Of a stretch of DNA of 64,000 nucleotides, positions 47,451 through 56,174 are shown in pieces. The position numbers were made by a program, and so were the translations under genes. Source of the DNA: Streptococcus sp. 29887 (GTDB lineage Bacteria > Bacillota > Bacilli > Lactobacillales > Streptococcaceae); contig NZ_CP118735.1 in the NCBI RefSeq assembly GCF_032595075.1, forward strand, positions 1,826,001-1,890,000, given 5' to 3'. The notes beneath the pieces were generated by a model that saw only the letters and a program-made list of their open reading frames with translations, made no database searches and was not told the origin of the DNA. How positions within the stretch are numbered: position 1 is the first letter of the stretch; every line of letters starts with the position of its first letter.

Positions 47451-50400
47451 TTAGTCTTCATTGCGACGACGTTTACCTGCAAGAGCAAGAGTTGCGATAA
47501 GCATACCTGCACCAAGTACTGCTGCTGATGATGAAGCTTCACCAGTGTTTGGCAATTGAGCCGCACCAGCTTTAGCAGTTGTTGCTGGAGCTGCAGGAGC
47601 CTGTGGTTTTGGTGTCGCAGGCGCTTGAGGCGCTGGACTTGCAGGAGTTTCTGGTTTTGGTGCAACAGGGTTGCTTACCTTACGGTAAATGTGGAGTGTA
47701 TCACCGTTTGGAAGTGTGATAGTCTTACCTGTGAACTCGTATCCTGGGATTGACTTGTTAGGTGTTGTACCCTCTTCTTGCGGTGCAATTGGGTTACCAT
47801 CTTCGTCAACGTGGTTTGTCACAACCTTAGTTACCTTACGGTAGATGTGTGTTGTGCTACCGTCTGGATCTGTTACAGTCTTACCTGTGAACTCATAACC
47901 TGGGATTGACTTATCTGGAGTTGTGCCATCTTCTTGTGGTGAGATAACATTACCTTCTTCGTCAACGTGGTTAGTTACTACTTTCTTAACAGGTGTTACT
48001 TTACGGTATACGTAAGTTACTACAGTTTCACCTTCGACTACTGTACCGTTTTCAGTACCGTCAACTCGAACAAGTTCGTATTCTTCACCGTTAAATGTGA
48101 TTGTACCTGGCTTGTTATCTGTTGTGTCGTATGGTGTGTCTACATCTGATGATGGTGTATCTGTAACTGGAGTAGAGATAACTGTACCATCTTCAGTAAC
48201 ATAGTTCACGACTACTGTACCCTTAGGTGTTACTTTACGGTAAACGTGGGTTGTATTGCCGTTTTCATCTGTAGTTGTCTTACCTGTGAACTCGTAACCT
48301 GGGATTGACTTGTCTGGAGTTGTGCCATCTTCTTGTGGTGAGATAACATTACCTTCTTCGTCAACGTGGTTAGTTACTACTTTCTTAACAGGTGTTACTT
48401 TACGGTATACGTAAGTTACTACAGTTTCACCTTCGACTACTGTACCGTTTTCAGTACCGTCAACTCGAACAAGTTCGTATTCTTCACCGTTAAATGTGAT
48501 TGTACTTGGCTTGTTATCTGTTGTGTCGTATGGTGTGTCTACATCTGATGATGGTGTATCTGTAACTGGAGTAGAGATAACTGTACCATCTTCAGTAACA
48601 TAGTTCACGACTACTGTACCCTTAGGTGTTACTTTACGGTAAACGTGGGTTGTATTGCCGTTTTCATCTGTAGTTGTCTTACCTGTGAACTCGTAACCTG
48701 GGATTGACTTGTCTGGAGTTGTGCCATCTTCTTGTGGTGAGATAACATTACCATCTTCGTCAACGTGGTTAGTTACTACTTTCTTAGCAGGTGTTACTTT
48801 ACGGTATACGTAAGTTACTACAGTTTCACCTTCGACAACTGTACCGTTTTCAGTACCGTCAACTCGAACAAGTTCGTATTCTTCACCATTAAATGTGATT
48901 GTACCTGGCTTGTTATCTGTTGTGTCGTATGGTGTCTCTACATCTGACGATGGTGTATCTGTAACAGGTTTAGAGATAACTGTACCATCTTCAGTGATAT
49001 AGTTCACAACAACTGTACCTTTAGGTGTTACTTTACGGTAAACGTGAGTTACATTGCCATCTTCATCAACAGTTGTCTTACCTGTGAACTCATATCCTGG
49101 GATTGAGGTATTTGGCTTAGTGCCATCTTCTTGTGGTGAAATAGACTTACCATTCTCATCAACGTGGTTGGTTACAGGAGATTTAACTGCGCTAGATACT
49201 TTGCGGTAAACGTATGTTACTTGCGTTGTACCCTCTACAACAGAACCATTTTCATTACCTTGAGTCAATACTGGAACCAATTCATAAACAGAACCATCAG
49301 CTGTAGTAATTGTTGTTGGTTTGTTATCTGTTGTATCGTAAGATGTACCTGTTGAAGTTGAGCTTGTATCTTCTACTGGAGAAGCAATCACATTACCTTC
49401 CGTGTCGATGTAGTTAACAACTACGTTACCTTTCACTTCTTCATATACGTAAGTTACTTGCTTGTCTTCGCCTGAAGTTACTGATCCATTTTCTTCACCA
49501 GTAGTCAAGCTTGGAACAAGTTTGTAAGTCTTACCATCTTCTGTAGTGATTGTAGTTGGCTTGTTGTCTTCAGTTGTGTATGTCTTACCTGGTTCAGCGT
49601 TCTCTTCGTCCTTAACTGGAGATTTGATTACTGTACCGTCAGTTGTTACATAGTTAACTGTTACAGAACCTGCTGGCTCGTAGACGTATTGAACAGTCGT
49701 AGTACCTTCAACAACAGTACCTTTCTCAGCAGCTGATGTATCTTTCACTTCTTTGTAGAAGTAAGTTACACCGTTGTGTTTGATAACTGCAGGTTTGTAA
49801 TCTGTTGTATCGTAAGATGTATCAAGTGCCGCGTCTGTTGTATCGTTCACTGATGTTGCAATTGTTTCACCATTCGTGTTCACATAGTTAACGACAACGC
49901 TACCGTTTGGATTTGGAGCTGGAGTTGTTACTTTTTGGTAGACATAAGTTACTTGCGTTGTACCTTCAACAACAGAACCATTTTCTTCACCCTTGGTCAA
50001 TACTGGAACAAGTTTGTACTCAGTACCATCTTCAGTTGTGATTGTTTCTGGCTTGTTATCTGTTGTATCGTAAGATGTACCTGTTGAAGTAGATGGTGTA
50101 TCTGTTACAGGTGCCTTGATGACATTGCCATCAGTGTCGATGTAATTAACAACAACGTCACCTTTCACTTCTTCGTATACGTAAGTCACTTGCTTGTCTT
50201 CGCCTGGAGTTACTGACCCGTTTTCCTCACCAGTAGTCAAGCTTGGAACAAGTTTGTATGTCTTACCATCTTCAGTTGTGATTGTAGTTGGCTTGTTATC
50301 TTCAGTTGTATATGTCTTACCTGGTTCAGCGTTTTCTTCGTCCTTAACTGGAGATTTGATTACTGTACCGTCTGTAGTTACATAGTTAACTGTTACAGAA

Positions 50401-53400
50401 CCTGCTGGCTCGTAGACGTATTGAACAGTCGTAGTACCTTCAACAACAGTACCTTTCTCAGCAGCTGATGTATCTTTCACTTCTTTGTAGAAGTAAGTCA
50501 CACCATCTTTTGTGATTGTTGCTGGTTTGAAATCAAATGTTTCATAGACAGTTCCAGTTGTTGTTTCTGGTGTATCTACAACATCAGAAGCAATCTTCTC
50601 ACCTGTAGTGTTGTAGTACTCAACAACAACGTTACCTTTCACTTCTTCGTAAACGTAAGTCACTTGCTTGTCTTCGCCTGAAGTTACTGATCCGTTTTCC
50701 TCACCAGCAGTCAAGCTTGGAACAAGTTTGTAGACTTTACCATCAGTTGTAGTGATAGTTTCTGGCTTGTTATCTGTTGTGTTGTACTCAGTACCTGGTT
50801 TTTGATTTGTTTCATCGTTAACAGGATCTTTGATAACTGTACCATCAGCCAATGTGTAGTTTACAACAACGTTACCAGCTTTTTGGTAAATATAAGTAAC
50901 TTCAGTCGTACCTTCTACAACTTTACCAGTTTCCTTATCACCTGCTTTTACTTCATCGGTTGGCAAGATATAGTATACATCACCAGTAGCATCTTCAACG
51001 ATTTTCTCTGGTTTGTTGTCTCTTGTGTTGTAGTCTGTACCTGTTGATGTTGATGGGGTATCAACTACTTGTGAAGCAATGACTTTGCCATCAGTGTTTA
51101 CATAGTTAACAACAACGTCACCCTTAACTTCTTCGTACACATAAGTTACTTGAGTTACACCTGGAACTACGTCACCTGTTTCAGAACCTTTAGTAAGGGT
51201 TGGAACAAGTTTGTATGTCTTACCATCAGCAGTTGTGATAGTAGTTGGTTTGTTGTCTTTTGTATCGTAGTCTGTACCTGTAGATGTTTCTGGTGTGTCT
51301 GTTACAGGTGCTTGAAGAACTTTGCCATCAGTTGTTACATAGTTAACAACAACTGAACCTTTCACTTCTTTGTAGACATAAGTAACTTCTTTTGTTACAC
51401 CTGCTTCTACAGTTCCAGTTTCATCACCAACTGTAGATGCTGGAACCAACTCATAAGTTTTACCTTCATCAGTAGTAATTGTAGTTGGTTTCAAGTCAGT
51501 TGTATCGTATGTTGAACCTGGTTTACCATCTTTAGTATCATCAACTGTGCTTGCTGTTGTAGCACCAGTATTTGTTGTACCTGAGAGTGGTGCGCCATCT
51601 TCAGTGATGTAGTTAACAACTACGTTACCAGCTTTTTCGTAAACATACTGAACAGTTGTTGTTGTTTCTGCTACATTACCAGTTGTTGGTGCAGAAGTGT
51701 CTTTCACTTCTTTGTAGTAGTAAACTGTGCCGTCCGCTGCTGTGATTGTTTCTGGTTTCTTATCGTCTGTATTGTAGGCTGTACCAACTGAAGCGTCTTC
51801 TGTATCCACTACAGATGTTGCGTTACCAGTTTCAGTACCTGAAATTGGATTGCCTTCTGTATCGTAGTACTCAACTACAACGTCAGATTTAACTTCTTCG
51901 TAGATGTAAGTAACTTCGATAGTCTTACCAGCTTCAACGTCACCAGTTTCGTTACCGATTGTTGCAGTTGGAACAAGTTTGTAGACTTTGCCATCAGTTG
52001 TTGTGATGGTTTCTGGTTTGTTGTCAGTAGTGTTGTAGTCGTAACCTGGCTTTTGGTTCGTTTCATCGTTCACAGGATCTTTGATGACTGTACCATCTGC
52101 CAATGTGTAGTTAACAACAACATTACCAGCTTTTTCGTAAACGTAGGTTACTTCTGTAGTACCTTCTACGACTTTGCCAGTTTCTTTAGTTGCATCTTCA
52201 GCTTTGATTTCTTTGTAGTAGTATACATCACCAGTCGCATCTTCAACGATTTTCTCTGGTTTGTTGTCTTTTGTATCGTAGTCTGTTCCCGTTGATGTTG
52301 TCTTTGTATCTACTACTTGGGTAGCAATTACTTTACCATCAGTATTTACGTAGTTAACAACAACATCACCTTTCACTTCTTCGTATACATATGTTACTTC
52401 TGTTACTCCTGGTACCACATCTCCTGTTTCTGTTCCTTTTGTTAGGATTGGTACTAGTTTGTATGTTTTACCGTCTTCTGTTGTAATTGTTTCTGGTTTG
52501 TTATCTTTTGTATCGTAGTCTGTTCCTGTTGATGACTCTGGTGTGTCTGTTACTGGATCTTTGATCGGTGTTCCATCTGTTGTTACGTATTTTACTACTA
52601 CTGATCCTTTTACTTCTTGGTAAACGTAAGTGACTTCTTTAGTAACACCTGCCTCGATCTCGCCAGTTGTTGCCGCTGAAGTTGCTGAAACTTCTTTAAA
52701 TGTATATGTCTTGCCATCTTCTGCAACAATTGTAGTTGGTTTTTCACCATCTTGTGTCGCATCATAAGTGGTCCCTGGTTCCCCATCGACTGTATCAACA
52801 ACTTTAGCTTTGATAACATCGCCAGCTTCGTTGACATAATTGATATTTACATGGCCAGCAGGAACATAAACATAGGTCAGTTCTTTGATAGTATTGCTTG
52901 CTACTGTTCCAGTTTCAGCAGTAATTTCTTCTACTGCACGCTCATCATCTGCATGTGTAGTAGCGGCAAATACTCCTGCATCGCCAACACCATCTACTTG
53001 TTTGTAGTAGTATGTTACTCCATCTTTAACAATCTTTTCATCACGCAATGGTTCTGTATTGTAATCTGAACCTGTGTCACCATGTGCTACAGATACCTTA
53101 CTATCCTGAAGAACATTACCTTTTTCATCAACGTAGAAGACTTCAACTGAACCTTTTTGAACGTAATAGAAAGTTGTATCAACATTGGCTTCTTGGAACT
53201 CATTATAAAGTAACCAATATCCTACTTCCCCTGGATATGAATATGGACGCTGCGCTGAATATGGACGGTCATAAGTTCCGTTTGGATCAACAGTAAAGTT
53301 TTTTAAATTATCCAGCTTACCTGTAGAGAAGACTGTAACGTAGGCTGAATCATCTTCACCTTCTTTTTTACGTTGGATTGAGATATCAATATCACCATCT

Positions 53401-55301
53401 TCAGAAACAAACGTTTTTACCCGACGTTCAACAAAACCATTCAATGGAGGTGCTACCGTAATTGCTGTCTTACCGATTACATAAGCTTCGGAGATTTTTC
53501 CTGATTCTTGTGTACCAGAAACAAATTCATAATTTGTGATATCTCTCTGAGTTGAAGAAGTGAAGATATCTCCCTCAAGACCTTTAATAGTATATGTCGC
53601 GATTAATTCTTCCGTACCTTGAACACGGTAATATGTAATTTGTTCAGGGTTCTTTGGTACATAGCTCCATAATTTATGAACAAGTTGTCCCTCCTGAACC
53701 AATCCGTTTGATTGCCAAACTCCTAGCATACGAAGATTCGCTGCATCACCACTACCAAAATAGAACTCTAGGCGATCAACAGCTTTTCCACCTACTTCTG
53801 TCTCTATGTAAGTTGCGGTGAAGTTCAGAGTAATTGGATTTTTAGTAACATCATGATTAATCGTAACATTCTCGATTTGACCGTTGAGGACCTTTTCATT
53901 ATCACCGAGTGAAACAGTTGTTTCTCCTAGTAACTCTTGTGTGTCCTTATTTACAATACGAACAAATACATCTGTACTAGTTGGATTAGTCAAATCTTTA
54001 GAGACCGTCATATAAACATTTTGACGCTTATCAGTTTCGTTTACTAAAGAATATGGCCCTAGATTTGATACAAGGAAGGTATAGCGATTTGGTGTTGGAT
54101 CATTCTTATAAACATCCGTCTCTATGAAATACGGACGAGTAATTGATGCACCTGCTGGGTCATCCATATCAGGAGTAACAGTGAACCCATCTGCAATAGC
54201 TCCTTGACCTGATGATTGGAGTTCTTGGAAGTCAGAACCCGGTCCTTGGTTGATCAATCCTTCTGTCAAATTTCCTGTCGTTGAAGTTGTTGCCAACATA
54301 ACTACAATATCACCAGTTTCAGAGAACTTACGCAATTCAAGCACAAGTGCCTCGACATTTGTACGAACCGCATCAATTTGTTCGTTGACAGTTTCTAGAG
54401 TAGCTGCTGAGTTATTCAATTCTGCAGTTGCTTCGCTTACTGCCAATCTAGTTGCTGAAGCCACTGCCTTCAAGGCTGTATTGGTGCTGTCTGCAGCAAC
54501 TAAACGTTCTGCTTCCTTAGTCAATAACTCTGCTTCTGAAGTTACTTGCTCAAGGACTACCTTTGCTTCTTCTACAGTAACAGGTGTTTTCGCAGTTTCA
54601 GCTACTGTTGCTGAAGTTGTTTCTTCTGTAGCTGAATTGGTTGCGCTTGAAGTTGGTGTAGTTGTTGTCTCAGAAGTAGCTGCTTTTGCCTCAGCTTTCT
54701 TCACAACTTTAACAGTAGCTACGTTTTGACCATTTTCTGTTACTTCAAGAGTAACTGTAGCTGATTGACCTGTTGCCAATTCGTAACCTGCTGGTACTTC
54801 AATATAAACTGGAATAATTGCTTTAGCAACTTCATCAGCTGTATTAATTGTCGCAGTGTTTACACTTGCGTTAACAAGTGTGCCGTCTTCTAACACATAT
54901 GTAACGATGTAGTTGATTGTTGCAATACGCTCTGCACTTGTAACTGTTTGTCCTTCGATAGTTACAACAGCTTCATCTGTTTCTGTAGTTGAAGCTACAG
55001 TTTCAGTAGATGAGCTTGTTGCAGCTTCAGCAGCTGAAACTGATGTTTCAGTCGTTGATGCAACTGTTGCTTCAGTAGCAACTGCTTCCGAACTCGCAGA
55101 CGAAGCTGTAGATGAAGCAACTGTCGCTATTGTTGTTTCTGATGAAGCTACAGTCTCCTCGGCTTGTGCTACTTGAGCTCCAGCACCCATAGCTAGTGAC
55201 ATACCAAGCAATACGCTGGCCGCACCAAAATGATATTTACGGATTGAGAAATGTTGTTTCATTCCATACCAATCAAATGATTTTTTCTTAATTTTGCGCA
55301 T
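47451..55301 (-). CDS. Giant YSIRK/LPxTG cell-wall-anchored adhesin with about 19 MucBP-type repeats
   Basis: A 2616-residue surface protein. The ATG at 55301 has AAGGAGG six bases upstream. Order: YSIRK-type signal peptide (FSIRKYHFGAASVLLGMSLA, about 18-37; cleavage after VAQA), a Ser/Thr/Ala-rich stretch to about 230, a helical segment (240-330), a non-repeat adhesive region (about 350-720), about 19 MucBP-like repeats of 75-90 residues (KGxVVVNYVxxDG...VTYVYEEV), interleaved at the end with five VTNHVDExGN...IPGYEFTGKT units, a Pro/Ala spacer, LPNTG, a membrane helix and KRRRNED. MucBP repeats in other species bind mucin glycans, so host mucosa attachment is likely. Sortase A should anchor it. 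Confidence 0.92.
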   Translation of the reverse strand: MRKIKKKSFDWYGMKQHFSIRKYHFGAASVLLGMSLAMGAGAQVAQAEETVASSETTIATVASSTASSASSEAVATEATVASTTETSVSAAEAATSSSTETVASTTETDEAVVTIEGQTVTSAERIATINYIVTYVLEDGTLVNASVNTATINTADEVAKAIIPVYIEVPAGYELATGQSATVTLEVTENGQNVATVKVVKKAEAKAATSETTTTPTSSATNSATEETTSATVAETAKTPVTVEEAKVVLEQVTSEAELLTKEAERLVAADSTNTALKAVASATRLAVSEATAELNNSAATLETVNEQIDAVRTNVEALVLELRKFSETGDIVVMLATTSTTGNLTEGLINQGPGSDFQELQSSGQGAIADGFTVTPDMDDPAGASITRPYFIETDVYKNDPTPNRYTFLVSNLGPYSLVNETDKRQNVYMTVSKDLTNPTSTDVFVRIVNKDTQELLGETTVSLGDNEKVLNGQIENVTINHDVTKNPITLNFTATYIETEVGGKAVDRLEFYFGSGDAANLRMLGVWQSNGLVQEGQLVHKLWSYVPKNPEQITYYRVQGTEELIATYTIKGLEGDIFTSSTQRDITNYEFVSGTQESGKISEAYVIGKTAITVAPPLNGFVERRVKTFVSEDGDIDISIQRKKEGEDDSAYVTVFSTGKLDNLKNFTVDPNGTYDRPYSAQRPYSYPGEVGYWLLYNEFQEANVDTTFYYVQKGSVEVFYVDEKGNVLQDSKVSVAHGDTGSDYNTEPLRDEKIVKDGVTYYYKQVDGVGDAGVFAATTHADDERAVEEITAETGTVASNTIKELTYVYVPAGHVNINYVNEAGDVIKAKVVDTVDGEPGTTYDATQDGEKPTTIVAEDGKTYTFKEVSATSAATTGEIEAGVTKEVTYVYQEVKGSVVVKYVTTDGTPIKDPVTDTPESSTGTDYDTKDNKPETITTEDGKTYKLVPILTKGTETGDVVPGVTEVTYVYEEVKGDVVVNYVNTDGKVIATQVVDTKTTSTGTDYDTKDNKPEKIVEDATGDVYYYKEIKAEDATKETGKVVEGTTEVTYVYEKAGNVVVNYTLADGTVIKDPVNDETNQKPGYDYNTTDNKPETITTTDGKVYKLVPTATIGNETGDVEAGKTIEVTYIYEEVKSDVVVEYYDTEGNPISGTETGNATSVVDTEDASVGTAYNTDDKKPETITAADGTVYYYKEVKDTSAPTTGNVAETTTTVQYVYEKAGNVVVNYITEDGAPLSGTTNTGATTASTVDDTKDGKPGSTYDTTDLKPTTITTDEGKTYELVPASTVGDETGTVEAGVTKEVTYVYKEVKGSVVVNYVTTDGKVLQAPVTDTPETSTGTDYDTKDNKPTTITTADGKTYKLVPTLTKGSETGDVVPGVTQVTYVYEEVKGDVVVNYVNTDGKVIASQVVDTPSTSTGTDYNTRDNKPEKIVEDATGDVYYILPTDEVKAGDKETGKVVEGTTEVTYIYQKAGNVVVNYTLADGTVIKDPVNDETNQKPGTEYNTTDNKPETITTTDGKVYKLVPSLTAGEENGSVTSGEDKQVTYVYEEVKGNVVVEYYNTTGEKIASDVVDTPETTTGTVYETFDFKPATITKDGVTYFYKEVKDTSAAEKGTVVEGTTTVQYVYEPAGSVTVNYVTTDGTVIKSPVKDEENAEPGKTYTTEDNKPTTITTEDGKTYKLVPSLTTGEENGSVTPGEDKQVTYVYEEVKGDVVVNYIDTDGNVIKAPVTDTPSTSTGTSYDTTDNKPETITTEDGTEYKLVPVLTKGEENGSVVEGTTQVTYVYQKVTTPAPNPNGSVVVNYVNTNGETIATSVNDTTDAALDTSYDTTDYKPAVIKHNGVTYFYKEVKDTSAAEKGTVVEGTTTVQYVYEPAGSVTVNYVTTDGTVIKSPVKDEENAEPGKTYTTEDNKPTTITTEDGKTYKLVPSLTTGEENGSVTSGEDKQVTYVYEEVKGNVVVNYIDTEGNVIASPVEDTSSTSTGTSYDTTDNKPTTITTADGSVYELVPVLTQGNENGSVVEGTTQVTYVYRKVSSAVKSPVTNHVDENGKSISPQEDGTKPNTSIPGYEFTGKTTVDEDGNVTHVYRKVTPKGTVVVNYITEDGTVISKPVTDTPSSDVETPYDTTDNKPGTITFNGEEYELVRVDGTENGTVVEGETVVTYVYRKVTPAKKVVTNHVDEDGNVISPQEDGTTPDKSIPGYEFTGKTTTDENGNTTHVYRKVTPKGTVVVNYVTEDGTVISTPVTDTPSSDVDTPYDTTDNKPSTITFNGEEYELVRVDGTENGTVVEGETVVTYVYRKVTPVKKVVTNHVDEEGNVISPQEDGTTPDKSIPGYEFTGKTTTDENGNTTHVYRKVTPKGTVVVNYVTEDGTVISTPVTDTPSSDVDTPYDTTDNKPGTITFNGEEYELVRVDGTENGTVVEGETVVTYVYRKVTPVKKVVTNHVDEEGNVISPQEDGTTPDKSIPGYEFTGKTVTDPDGSTTHIYRKVTKVVTNHVDEDGNPIAPQEEGTTPNKSIPGYEFTGKTITLPNGDTLHIYRKVSNPVAPKPETPASPAPQAPATPKPQAPAAPATTAKAGAAQLPNTGEASSSAAVLGAGMLIATLALAGKRRRNED
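47960..49156 (-). repeat. Three near-identical 399-bp tandem repeats in the adhesin gene
   Basis: Three units of 399 bp (133 codons) beginning around 47960, 48359 and 48758 differ by only a few bases. Each encodes one MucBP repeat plus one VTNHVDE unit. The identity at synonymous sites indicates recent duplication or gene conversion and makes unit loss or gain by recombination likely. Confidence 0.85.
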
Positions 55302-55401: not shown

Positions 55402-55430
55402 TGTATAGTAGAAAAGCTAACAACTCACCA
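55402..55430 (-). promoter_or_regulatory. Possible weak gene-proximal adhesin promoter
   Basis: Minus strand TGGTGA (55430-55425), 17-bp spacer, TATACA (55407-55402). The -35 is poor. If active it would give basal expression independent of the G-tract promoters. Confidence 0.35.
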
Positions 55431-55471
55431 TAGAAATTGCGATAATCAATATAGTGGGGGTGATTGGTACA

Positions 55472-55721
55472 AATCCGCTTAGAATAATGAGATGAGAAAT
55501 TATCTACTCAACCTTTGTTGCTCTTACTATATGAAAATTCACATAGCCGTCTTTGATATATGAATATCACTGTCAGTATATCACCCCCCCCCCACTTTTA
55601 TCAAATAATATGTTTATATATATATTTACTTAAATGTTTTTGTAAGTATTTTCGTAAATAAAAACTTCCAGAACTAGTTCCGGGAACTAACAATCTTTAC
55701 TTTATGAAGATAAAAATTACC
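55472..55721. repeat. 250-bp tandem duplication upstream of the adhesin, copy A
   Basis: Starts AATCCGCTTAGAATAATGAG and ends GAAGATAAAAATTACC. It is repeated at once by 55722-55977. The two copies differ at a handful of bases and in the length of the C/G homopolymer: 10 here, 16 in copy B, which accounts for the whole 6-bp difference in length. Confidence 0.9.
55575..55604 (-). promoter_or_regulatory. Candidate phase-variable promoter A: G10 tract between -35 and -10
   Basis: Minus strand TTGATA (55604-55599), spacer AAAGT-G10-TGA of 18 bp, TATACT (55580-55575). The TG before the -10 gives an extended -10. The homopolymer occupies most of the spacer, so each slippage event changes -35/-10 spacing by one base. 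At G10 the spacing is close to the 17-bp optimum, predicted ON. The leader to the adhesin ATG would be about 270 nt. Confidence 0.7.
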
Positions 55722-55977
55722 AATCCGCTTAGAATAATGAGATGAGAAATTATCTACTCAACCTTTGTTGCTCTTACTATATGAAAATTCACATAGCCGT
55801 CTTTGATATATGAATATCACTGTTAGTATATCACCCCCCCCCCCCCCCCACTTTTATCAAATAATATGTTTGTATATATATATTCTTAAATGTTTTTGTA
55901 AGTATTTTCGTAAATAAAAACTTCCAGAACTAGTTCCGGGAACTAACAATCTTTACTTTATGAAGATAAAAATTACC
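55722..55977. repeat. 250-bp tandem duplication upstream of the adhesin, copy B
   Basis: 256 bp, same content as copy A with G16 instead of G10, TGTTAG for TGTCAG next to the -10, and minor changes in the TA-rich stretch after the tract. Confidence 0.9.
55825..55860 (-). promoter_or_regulatory. Candidate phase-variable promoter B: G16 tract between -35 and -10
   Basis: Minus strand TTGATA (55860-55855), spacer AAAGT-G16-TGA of 24 bp, TATACT (55830-55825). The spacing is far from optimal, so the core promoter is predicted weak or OFF in this sequence. Confidence 0.65.
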
Positions 55978-56098: not shown

Positions 56099-56135
56099 AC
56101 ATCTACCCACTACAGTTGACAAAGAGCCAAAAAAA
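56099..56135. repeat. Flanking direct repeat, right copy
   Basis: Begins ACATCTACCCACTACAGTTG and runs through ACAAAGAGCC to seven A; same orientation as 47321-47357 with two mismatches. The two copies bracket the adhesin and its promoter region (8.8 kb). Confidence 0.8.
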
Positions 56136-56152
56136 GAGGACCAACTGTCCTC
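56129..56152 (-). terminator. metI terminator
   Basis: Minus strand GAGGAC, loop AGTTG, GTCCTC followed by seven T, after the metI stop; its T run is part of the flanking repeat. Confidence 0.8.
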
Positions 56153-56174
56153 TCAAAAACCTCAAAAACATAAC

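What the first reader, a model, noticed from the sequence alone, without database searches (positions are those of the whole stretch)
55575..55604. G10 homopolymer fills the spacer of a promoter for a giant adhesin: candidate phase-variable ON/OFF switch
Seen: on the adhesin's coding strand TTGATA, then AAAGT-G10-TGA (18 bp), then TATACT with an extended -10 TG. Known: G or C tracts between -35 and -10 change promoter strength by slipped-strand mispairing in Neisseria porA and opc. Inferred: slippage at G10 would move the spacing between 17 (best), 18 and poorer values, giving graded or ON/OFF expression of a wall-anchored MucBP adhesin.
Basis: partly seen in the sequence, partly recalled or inferred. 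Interest (0 to 1): 0.9.

Follow-up and report, generated by a model that had tools for sequence, protein, structure and literature searches.

The report
Tandem poly-G promoter switches for adhesin
In a Streptococcus that is probably of the S. suis group, the gene for a giant cell-surface protein is preceded by two copies of a promoter whose middle is a run of Gs (10 in one, 16 in the other), a layout that recurs in front of related surface proteins and probably lets cells randomly turn the protein up or down.

Summary
In detail: the minus strand reads TTGATA-AAAGT-G10-TGA-TATACT (55604-55575, spacer 18). The 2.3-Mb genome has five G tracts of 8 or more; four lie in promoter-like spacers upstream of three YSIRK giant proteins. 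Among related adhesins, 14 of 26 loci carry G7-G16 between a -35 and a -10, against 0 of 19 other YSIRK loci. Tract length differs in 7 of 8 comparisons with flanks at least 93% identical. A strict pattern occurs 15 times in 284 Streptococcus genomes, reversed control 0; 10 of 15 precede surface-type proteins. Best explanation: a porA/opc-type slipped-strand promoter switch, here an adhesin-family trait and, in this genome, a double switch. Switching within a clone and effect on expression are inferred. No such report for S. suis appeared in the rows listed by my searches. New variant of a known kind.

The parts
55575..55604 (-). Proximal promoter: TTGATA, AAAGT-G10-TGA spacer (18), TATACT with extended -10 TG
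   Evidence: Read directly; best-scoring site of the region (10 of 12 plus TG); shuffle test 10/5000
55584..55593 (-). G10 tract (C10 on + strand)
55825..55860 (-). Distal promoter: the same boxes with G16, spacer 24
   Evidence: shuffle test 14/5000
55834..55849 (-). G16 tract (C16 on + strand)
55468..55717 (-). Downstream copy of the ~250-bp tandem promoter block
   Evidence: the repeat finder; alignment (7 substitutions in 264 aligned columns, one gap of 6 in the G tract)
55718..55973 (-). Upstream copy of the block (similarity continues to about 55987)
   Evidence: the syntenic locus of another genome (G253, L220) shows one copy
55554..55569 (-). Inverted repeat TGATATTCATATATCA starting 5 bases after the proximal -10, around the expected transcript start; same in the distal copy at 55804-55819
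   Evidence: 35 of 500 shuffles as good for this copy; folding z of -1 or lower just after the -10 in 14 of 19 loci tested
55668..55683 (-). Weak terminator-like hairpin (CCGGAACTAGTTCTGG, then AAGTTTTT) between the two promoters; second copy at 55924-55939
   Evidence: folding -6.1 kcal/mol
47451..55301 (-). Giant wall-anchored adhesin (2616 aa): YSIRK signal, MucBP and SSSPR-51 repeats, LPNTG anchor
56134..56154 (-). Terminator-like hairpin after the upstream ABC transporter operon, so the adhesin is probably its own transcription unit
   Evidence: -12.0 kcal/mol

Best explanation
The adhesin gene is transcribed from sigma-70-type promoters whose -35/-10 spacing is set by a poly-G tract. Replication slippage adds or removes Gs, moving the spacing in and out of the range that RNA polymerase tolerates, so cells of one clone stochastically express the giant adhesin at high, low or no level. 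In this genome the promoter block is duplicated: the proximal copy (G10, spacer 18) is predicted ON or near optimal, the distal copy (G16, spacer 24) OFF. The two tracts can slip independently, and recombination between the 250-bp repeats could also collapse or expand the pair. Shown: the architecture, the duplication, its recurrence before related adhesins, and tract-length differences between near-identical loci. Inferred: switching within a clone, effect on transcription, which copy is active, and benefit (surface heterogeneity against host immunity, or attachment and detachment).
For: Own genome: five tracts of G8 or more in 2.3 Mb, in four regions; four tracts (three of the four regions) lie in a promoter-like spacer upstream of three of 16 YSIRK genes; chance of at least 3 of 4 regions within 1 kb upstream on the same strand about 1.6e-7. 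Relatives: 14 of 26 family loci have G7-G16 in a promoter spacer; 0 of 19 other YSIRK loci have G7 or more within 700 bp (the script merged L203 with L168, so it prints 13 of 25). Spacers of the 15 tracts: 16-20, and 24 for the distal copy. Flank shuffles: for 11 of these 15 tracts under 1% of shuffles reach the observed promoter score, for the other four 1.8-9.3%. Syntenic locus in another genome (L220): TTGACA, G8, TACAAT, spacer 17. Tract length differs in 7 of 8 comparisons with flanks at least 93% identical, including 10 versus 16 inside this window. Strict pattern 15 matches against 0 for the reversed pattern in 284 Streptococcus genomes.
Against: No set of strains or colonies of one species was reachable, so slippage within a clone is unseen. 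Homopolymer lengths in assemblies can be wrong. An extended -10 may keep some transcription at poor spacing (general knowledge). 12 of 26 family loci have no such tract, so the family does not need it; one of these 12 (L183) has a G10 that is not in a promoter (4308 of 5000 shuffles score as well). Five of 15 strict-pattern sites are not next to a surface protein: four orthologous sites lie about 450 bp before an acetyltransferase-like gene and one before an ABC permease. The tract at 651919 before a phoH-like gene scores as a promoter no better than 751 of 5000 shuffles. One of the eight close comparisons shows equal tracts, and the eight come from only four groups of loci.
Confidence: 0.8

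Rival explanations
1. The tract is a fixed part of a promoter (a G-rich spacer that sets DNA shape), not a switch; its length differences are neutral drift or assembly error.
For: 14 of 15 spacers lie at 16-20, as expected for promoters under selection to stay active; homopolymer miscounts are a common assembly error (general knowledge).
Against: The length differs by 6 within one genome next to flanks that are 97% and 99% identical, and by 0 to 4 in the other close comparisons. Runs of G8 or more are rare in this genome (five), so a long unstable run is an odd choice if stability were wanted. The runs concentrate before surface proteins.
Confidence: 0.12
2. The tract acts by changing the distance between regulator sites (as upstream of nadA with NadR) rather than the -35/-10 spacing; a repressor may bind the inverted repeat at the transcript start.
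For: An inverted repeat (TGATA-N-TATCA type) starts 5 bases after the -10 in the window, L170, L180 and L198, with related forms in L177 and L199 (the last two judged by eye).
Against: The tract lies between -35 and -10 in the 14 family loci counted, unlike nadA. Some of the repeats need a G-U pair (L182, L202, L154; read by eye), which fits an RNA hairpin better than a DNA operator. No regulator was looked for.
Confidence: 0.06
3. The adhesin is mainly transcribed from another, weak non-variable promoter close to the gene, and the poly-G promoters are minor.
For: TTGTTA-18-TAAAAT at 55423-55394 scores 9 of 12.
Against: Promoter-like sites in this region are not clearly more frequent than in shuffles (7 found, 4.9 +/- 2.3 expected). 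The poly-G promoter is the best site of the region and is kept in another genome whose flanking DNA is 71% identical.
Confidence: 0.08

Closest known systems
Neisseria meningitidis porA, opc and fetA promoters (homopolymer between -35 and -10)
   Same: G or C homopolymer inside the promoter spacer of a surface protein; length changes alter expression (PMC2791445, passages seen; opc 11 C in the parent versus 12 C in high-expressing variants, PMC3447861, passages seen)
   Different: Gram-positive host; giant wall-anchored adhesins; recurs before several paralogues; here duplicated in tandem; no expression data
Streptococcus pyogenes Spy1336/R28 intergenic T tract, and the T tract upstream of group B bca
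   Same: Homopolymer upstream of an LPXTG surface protein of a streptococcus; for R28, length changes transcript level (PMC7098570, passages seen)
   Different: Poly-T, not poly-G; a figure legend speaks of changed spacing of ATTTTT direct repeats; whether the tract lies between -35 and -10 I did not see
Streptococcus pyogenes mga poly-C and Bifidobacterium breve pilus G-tracts
   Same: G/C homopolymer slippage (C8; G10 and G11) in Gram-positive bacteria controls surface proteins (PMC10330708 and PMC9187656, passages seen)
   Different: Tract lies in coding sequence and acts by frameshift. The B. breve paper says in one sentence that some other G-tracts of that strain lie in promoter spacers
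Streptococcus gallolyticus pil1 GCAGA repeats
   Same: Repeat-number phase variation of a streptococcal surface structure (PMC3894217, passages seen)
   Different: Pentanucleotide in a leader peptide; acts by attenuation

Membership tests
Promoter-spacer homopolymer phase-variable loci (porA/opc type) | Homopolymer lies between -35 and -10 of a sigma-70-type promoter | tested here: met
   (by sequence; promoter activity itself not shown)
Promoter-spacer homopolymer phase-variable loci (porA/opc type) | Tract length varies while the flanks are conserved | tested here: met
   G10 versus G16 in the two copies; 7 of 8 close comparisons differ; between copies and relatives only
Promoter-spacer homopolymer phase-variable loci (porA/opc type) | Downstream gene encodes a surface-exposed protein | tested here: met
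   YSIRK, MucBP, LPXTG
Promoter-spacer homopolymer phase-variable loci (porA/opc type) | Reversible length change within a clonal population | not testable with these tools
   one genome per species was held
Promoter-spacer homopolymer phase-variable loci (porA/opc type) | Transcript level depends on tract length | not testable with these tools
   no expression data
Coding-sequence slippage switch (mga, B. breve pilus type) | Tract lies inside the reading frame | tested here: not met
   G10 ends 282 bases before the likely start and lies upstream of the longest open frame
nadA type (tract upstream of the core promoter) | Tract outside the -35/-10 interval | tested here: not met

The most novel reading that the evidence does not exclude
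The duplicated promoter is a two-element stochastic switch (two independently slipping tracts, separated by a weak terminator-like hairpin, with copy number itself variable by recombination) that gives graded adhesin levels, and it is one member of a set of poly-G promoters that lets streptococci of the S. suis group shuffle which giant adhesins are displayed. Similar poly-G spacer promoters may serve the same purpose for exported proteins and lipoproteins of some uncultured gut bacteria.
Probability: 0.35. Interest if true: 0.78.

Novelty: new variant of a known kind. Interest (0 to 1): 0.64.

Why it matters
For S. suis, the phase-variation papers that my searches listed concern DNA methyltransferases (PMC8125046, PMC6265453, PMC10790761; listing and start of abstract). 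A family of directly phase-variable adhesin promoters would explain variable surface-protein expression between cells and isolates, matters for choosing surface antigens for vaccines or typing, and offers a readable code: tract length in existing reads would predict expression state. The tandem copy gives a natural case of two switches in series on one gene.

Tried and rejected
No Rfam family reaches its gathering score in the window's promoter region (L001) or around the phoH-side tract (L011). A first species guess (S. salivarius, used as a search word) was dropped: contig G259:C43 has the same length (88171) as a contig titled S. suis strain 2187, and a 2437-column alignment of own-genome locus L150 with its counterpart L158 from G259 is 95% identical.

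A general reading (poly-G promoters all over Bacillota) was checked and weakened: 0 of 158 other Bacillota genomes, drawn evenly, have the strict pattern. Of these, 71 had a usable downstream gene of 150 aa or more within 500 bp; 41 of 71 begin with a strongly hydrophobic stretch against 115 of 432 other open frames of the same loci. Many come from a few metagenome bins and repeated gene families, so the p-value there is inflated; a hydropathy rule was used, no signal-peptide program.

Rows left out of the family count: L189, L211 and L215 (less than 350 bp upstream before the contig end); L215 also gave a meaningless score. L183 was kept as a miss. Nine of the 16 own YSIRK genes do not fit the motif used and so are not among its 19 'others'; none of the nine has a G run of 7 or more upstream. 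Some of the 26 family loci are close orthologues of each other. In one search, 19 loci were tested of the 27 listed (seven near-duplicates and L011 left out); 5 of 19 had z above -1, and the control stretches 60 bases further on were sometimes as stable (for the window -3.2 against -3.6 kcal/mol).

Full report
What is there. The minus strand carries TTGATA-AAAGT-G10-TGA-TATACT at 55604-55575. The ~250-bp block that holds it is repeated immediately upstream; the second copy has G16 in the same place, spacer 24 instead of 18. Between the copies there are 7 substitutions in 264 aligned columns and one gap, six bases, in the G tract. These are the only G or C runs of seven or more in 64 kb. The gene behind them encodes a 2616-aa YSIRK/MucBP/SSSPR-51/LPXTG protein. 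A terminator-like hairpin (56154-56134) follows the preceding transporter operon.

Own genome. G8 or longer occurs as five tracts in 2.3 Mb. Two are in the window; G8 at 788568 and G9 at 1489301 also lie in promoter-like spacers (16 and 18) before two further YSIRK giant proteins. The fifth (651919, G9, before a phoH-like gene, named by eye) has a weak promoter-like setting that 751 of 5000 shuffles equal. Sixteen YSIRK genes were found, so three of 16 carry such promoters; the other 13 have no G run of 7 or more upstream. The probability that at least 3 of 4 regions fall within 1 kb upstream of YSIRK genes on the right strand is about 1.6e-7.

Relatives. A search with the first 300 residues of the adhesin found matches in 22 of 284 Streptococcus genomes; missing upstream regions were fetched. 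Among 26 loci with the QHFSIRKYHFGAASVLLG signal and at least 350 bp upstream, 14 have G7-G16 inside a promoter spacer and 12 do not (it prints 13 of 25, because L203 and L168 share an identical 250-bp key and were merged). Of 19 other YSIRK loci none has G7 or more within 700 bp. Three loci were too close to a contig end to judge. Spacers of the 15 tracts (window counted twice) are 16,16,16,17,17,17,17,18,18,18,19,19,20,20,24. The -35 is TTGAAA, TTGATA, TTGCAA or TTGACA, then a 3-5 base linker, the tract, a 3-5 base linker (TG before the -10 in 12 of 15) and a TATAAT-like box. With shuffled flanks, 11 of these 15 arrangements are equalled in under 1% of shuffles, and L170, L180, L182 and L202 in 1.8%, 3.6%, 9.3% and 4.2%. 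The locus of another genome beside the same transporter genes (G253, L002/L220) has one copy, G8, spacer 17, so the tandem copy is probably derived; that rests on one genome.

Length variation. Eleven flank comparisons were made. Eight have both 100-bp flanks at least 93% identical; in seven of these the tract differs (10/16, 8/11, 8/11, 8/7, 11/7, 12/11, 12/11) and in one it is equal (11/11). They come from four groups of loci and are not independent. Of the other three, more diverged, two have equal tracts (11/11, 8/8) and one differs (9/10). In L168 and L203 the 250 bp before the FSIRK motif are identical while the tract is G8 and G11.

Genus and beyond. The strict pattern TTGA-N3-16-G7-TGN-TATA(A/C)T occurs 15 times in 12 of 284 Streptococcus genomes; the reversed pattern occurs 0 times. 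Ten of the 15 sites precede surface-type proteins: three sites of this genome and L158 before adhesins of this family, L146, L147, L151 and L156 before other YSIRK proteins, L145 before a KxYKxGKxW-signal protein, and L152 before a pilin (L156 and L158 were judged by sequence and not scanned; for the loci outside this genome only the N-terminal part was seen, so wall anchors were not checked). Four orthologous sites (L148, L149, L154, L155) lie about 450 bp before an acetyltransferase-like gene (judged by eye) and one (L153) before an ABC permease. Outside the genus the strict pattern is rare: 0 of 158 other Bacillota genomes. A scan of all species genomes still gave 117 stretches before its limit, with several in single metagenome bins and an excess of hydrophobic N-termini downstream (41 of 71 against 115 of 432).

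Mechanism. The simplest reading is slippage at the tract, change of -35/-10 spacing, and change of transcription, as in porA, opc and fetA (PMC2791445, PMC3447861; passages seen). Group A streptococci slip at C8 in mga (PMC10330708) and change surface-protein transcript with a T tract (PMC7098570) (passages seen). By spacing, the proximal copy should be active and the distal one silent (inferred). A weak hairpin with a T-rich tail lies between the two promoters and might dampen transcripts from the distal copy (inferred). Recombination between the repeats could change promoter number (inferred). An inverted repeat just after the -10 recurs at the same offset in several family members and may form a hairpin at the transcript's 5' end; 5 of 19 loci tested show no sign of it.

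Limits. One genome per species was available, so variation within a strain or species was not tested. Homopolymer lengths may carry assembly error. There are no expression data. The species is inferred. Statements about absence from the literature rest on the rows listed by the searches in an open-access subset; several of these listed only the top 10 to 20 of more than 100 papers.

Noticed in passing
window 55554-55569 and 55804-55819; L170, L180, L182, L198, L199, L202 after the -10: A short inverted repeat starting a few bases after the -10 recurs in many of these promoters, sometimes with a G-U pair; it may be a 5'-terminal mRNA hairpin or an operator.
   Followed up: partly
L148, L149, L154, L155 (about position 1505-1540): Four orthologous poly-G promoters (G8, G11, G11, G7) lie about 450 bp before an acetyltransferase-like gene with no surface protein directly downstream; in L004 a metallopeptidase-like gene lies upstream (judged by eye). 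The target is unclear.
   Followed up: partly
L028-L144 (genome-contig scan): Some metagenome bins carry several poly-G spacer promoters: 10 of the 80 printed rows are from one Candidatus Ancillula bin and 7 from the Clostridia bin Lapin-032__bin86, the latter mostly before similar lipoprotein-like starts.
   Followed up: partly
window 55430-55470; L168 leader; L220: A second element with a short C run (ACCAATCA..CCC..ATTGATTAT) lies in the leader between promoter and gene in the window, in L168 and in L220 (by eye).
   Followed up: no
L011 1501-1509 (own genome 651919): G9 directly before a TATAAT upstream of a phoH-like gene, with TTGCAT at spacing 15; weak (751 of 5000 shuffles as good) but possibly another variable promoter.
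   Followed up: partly
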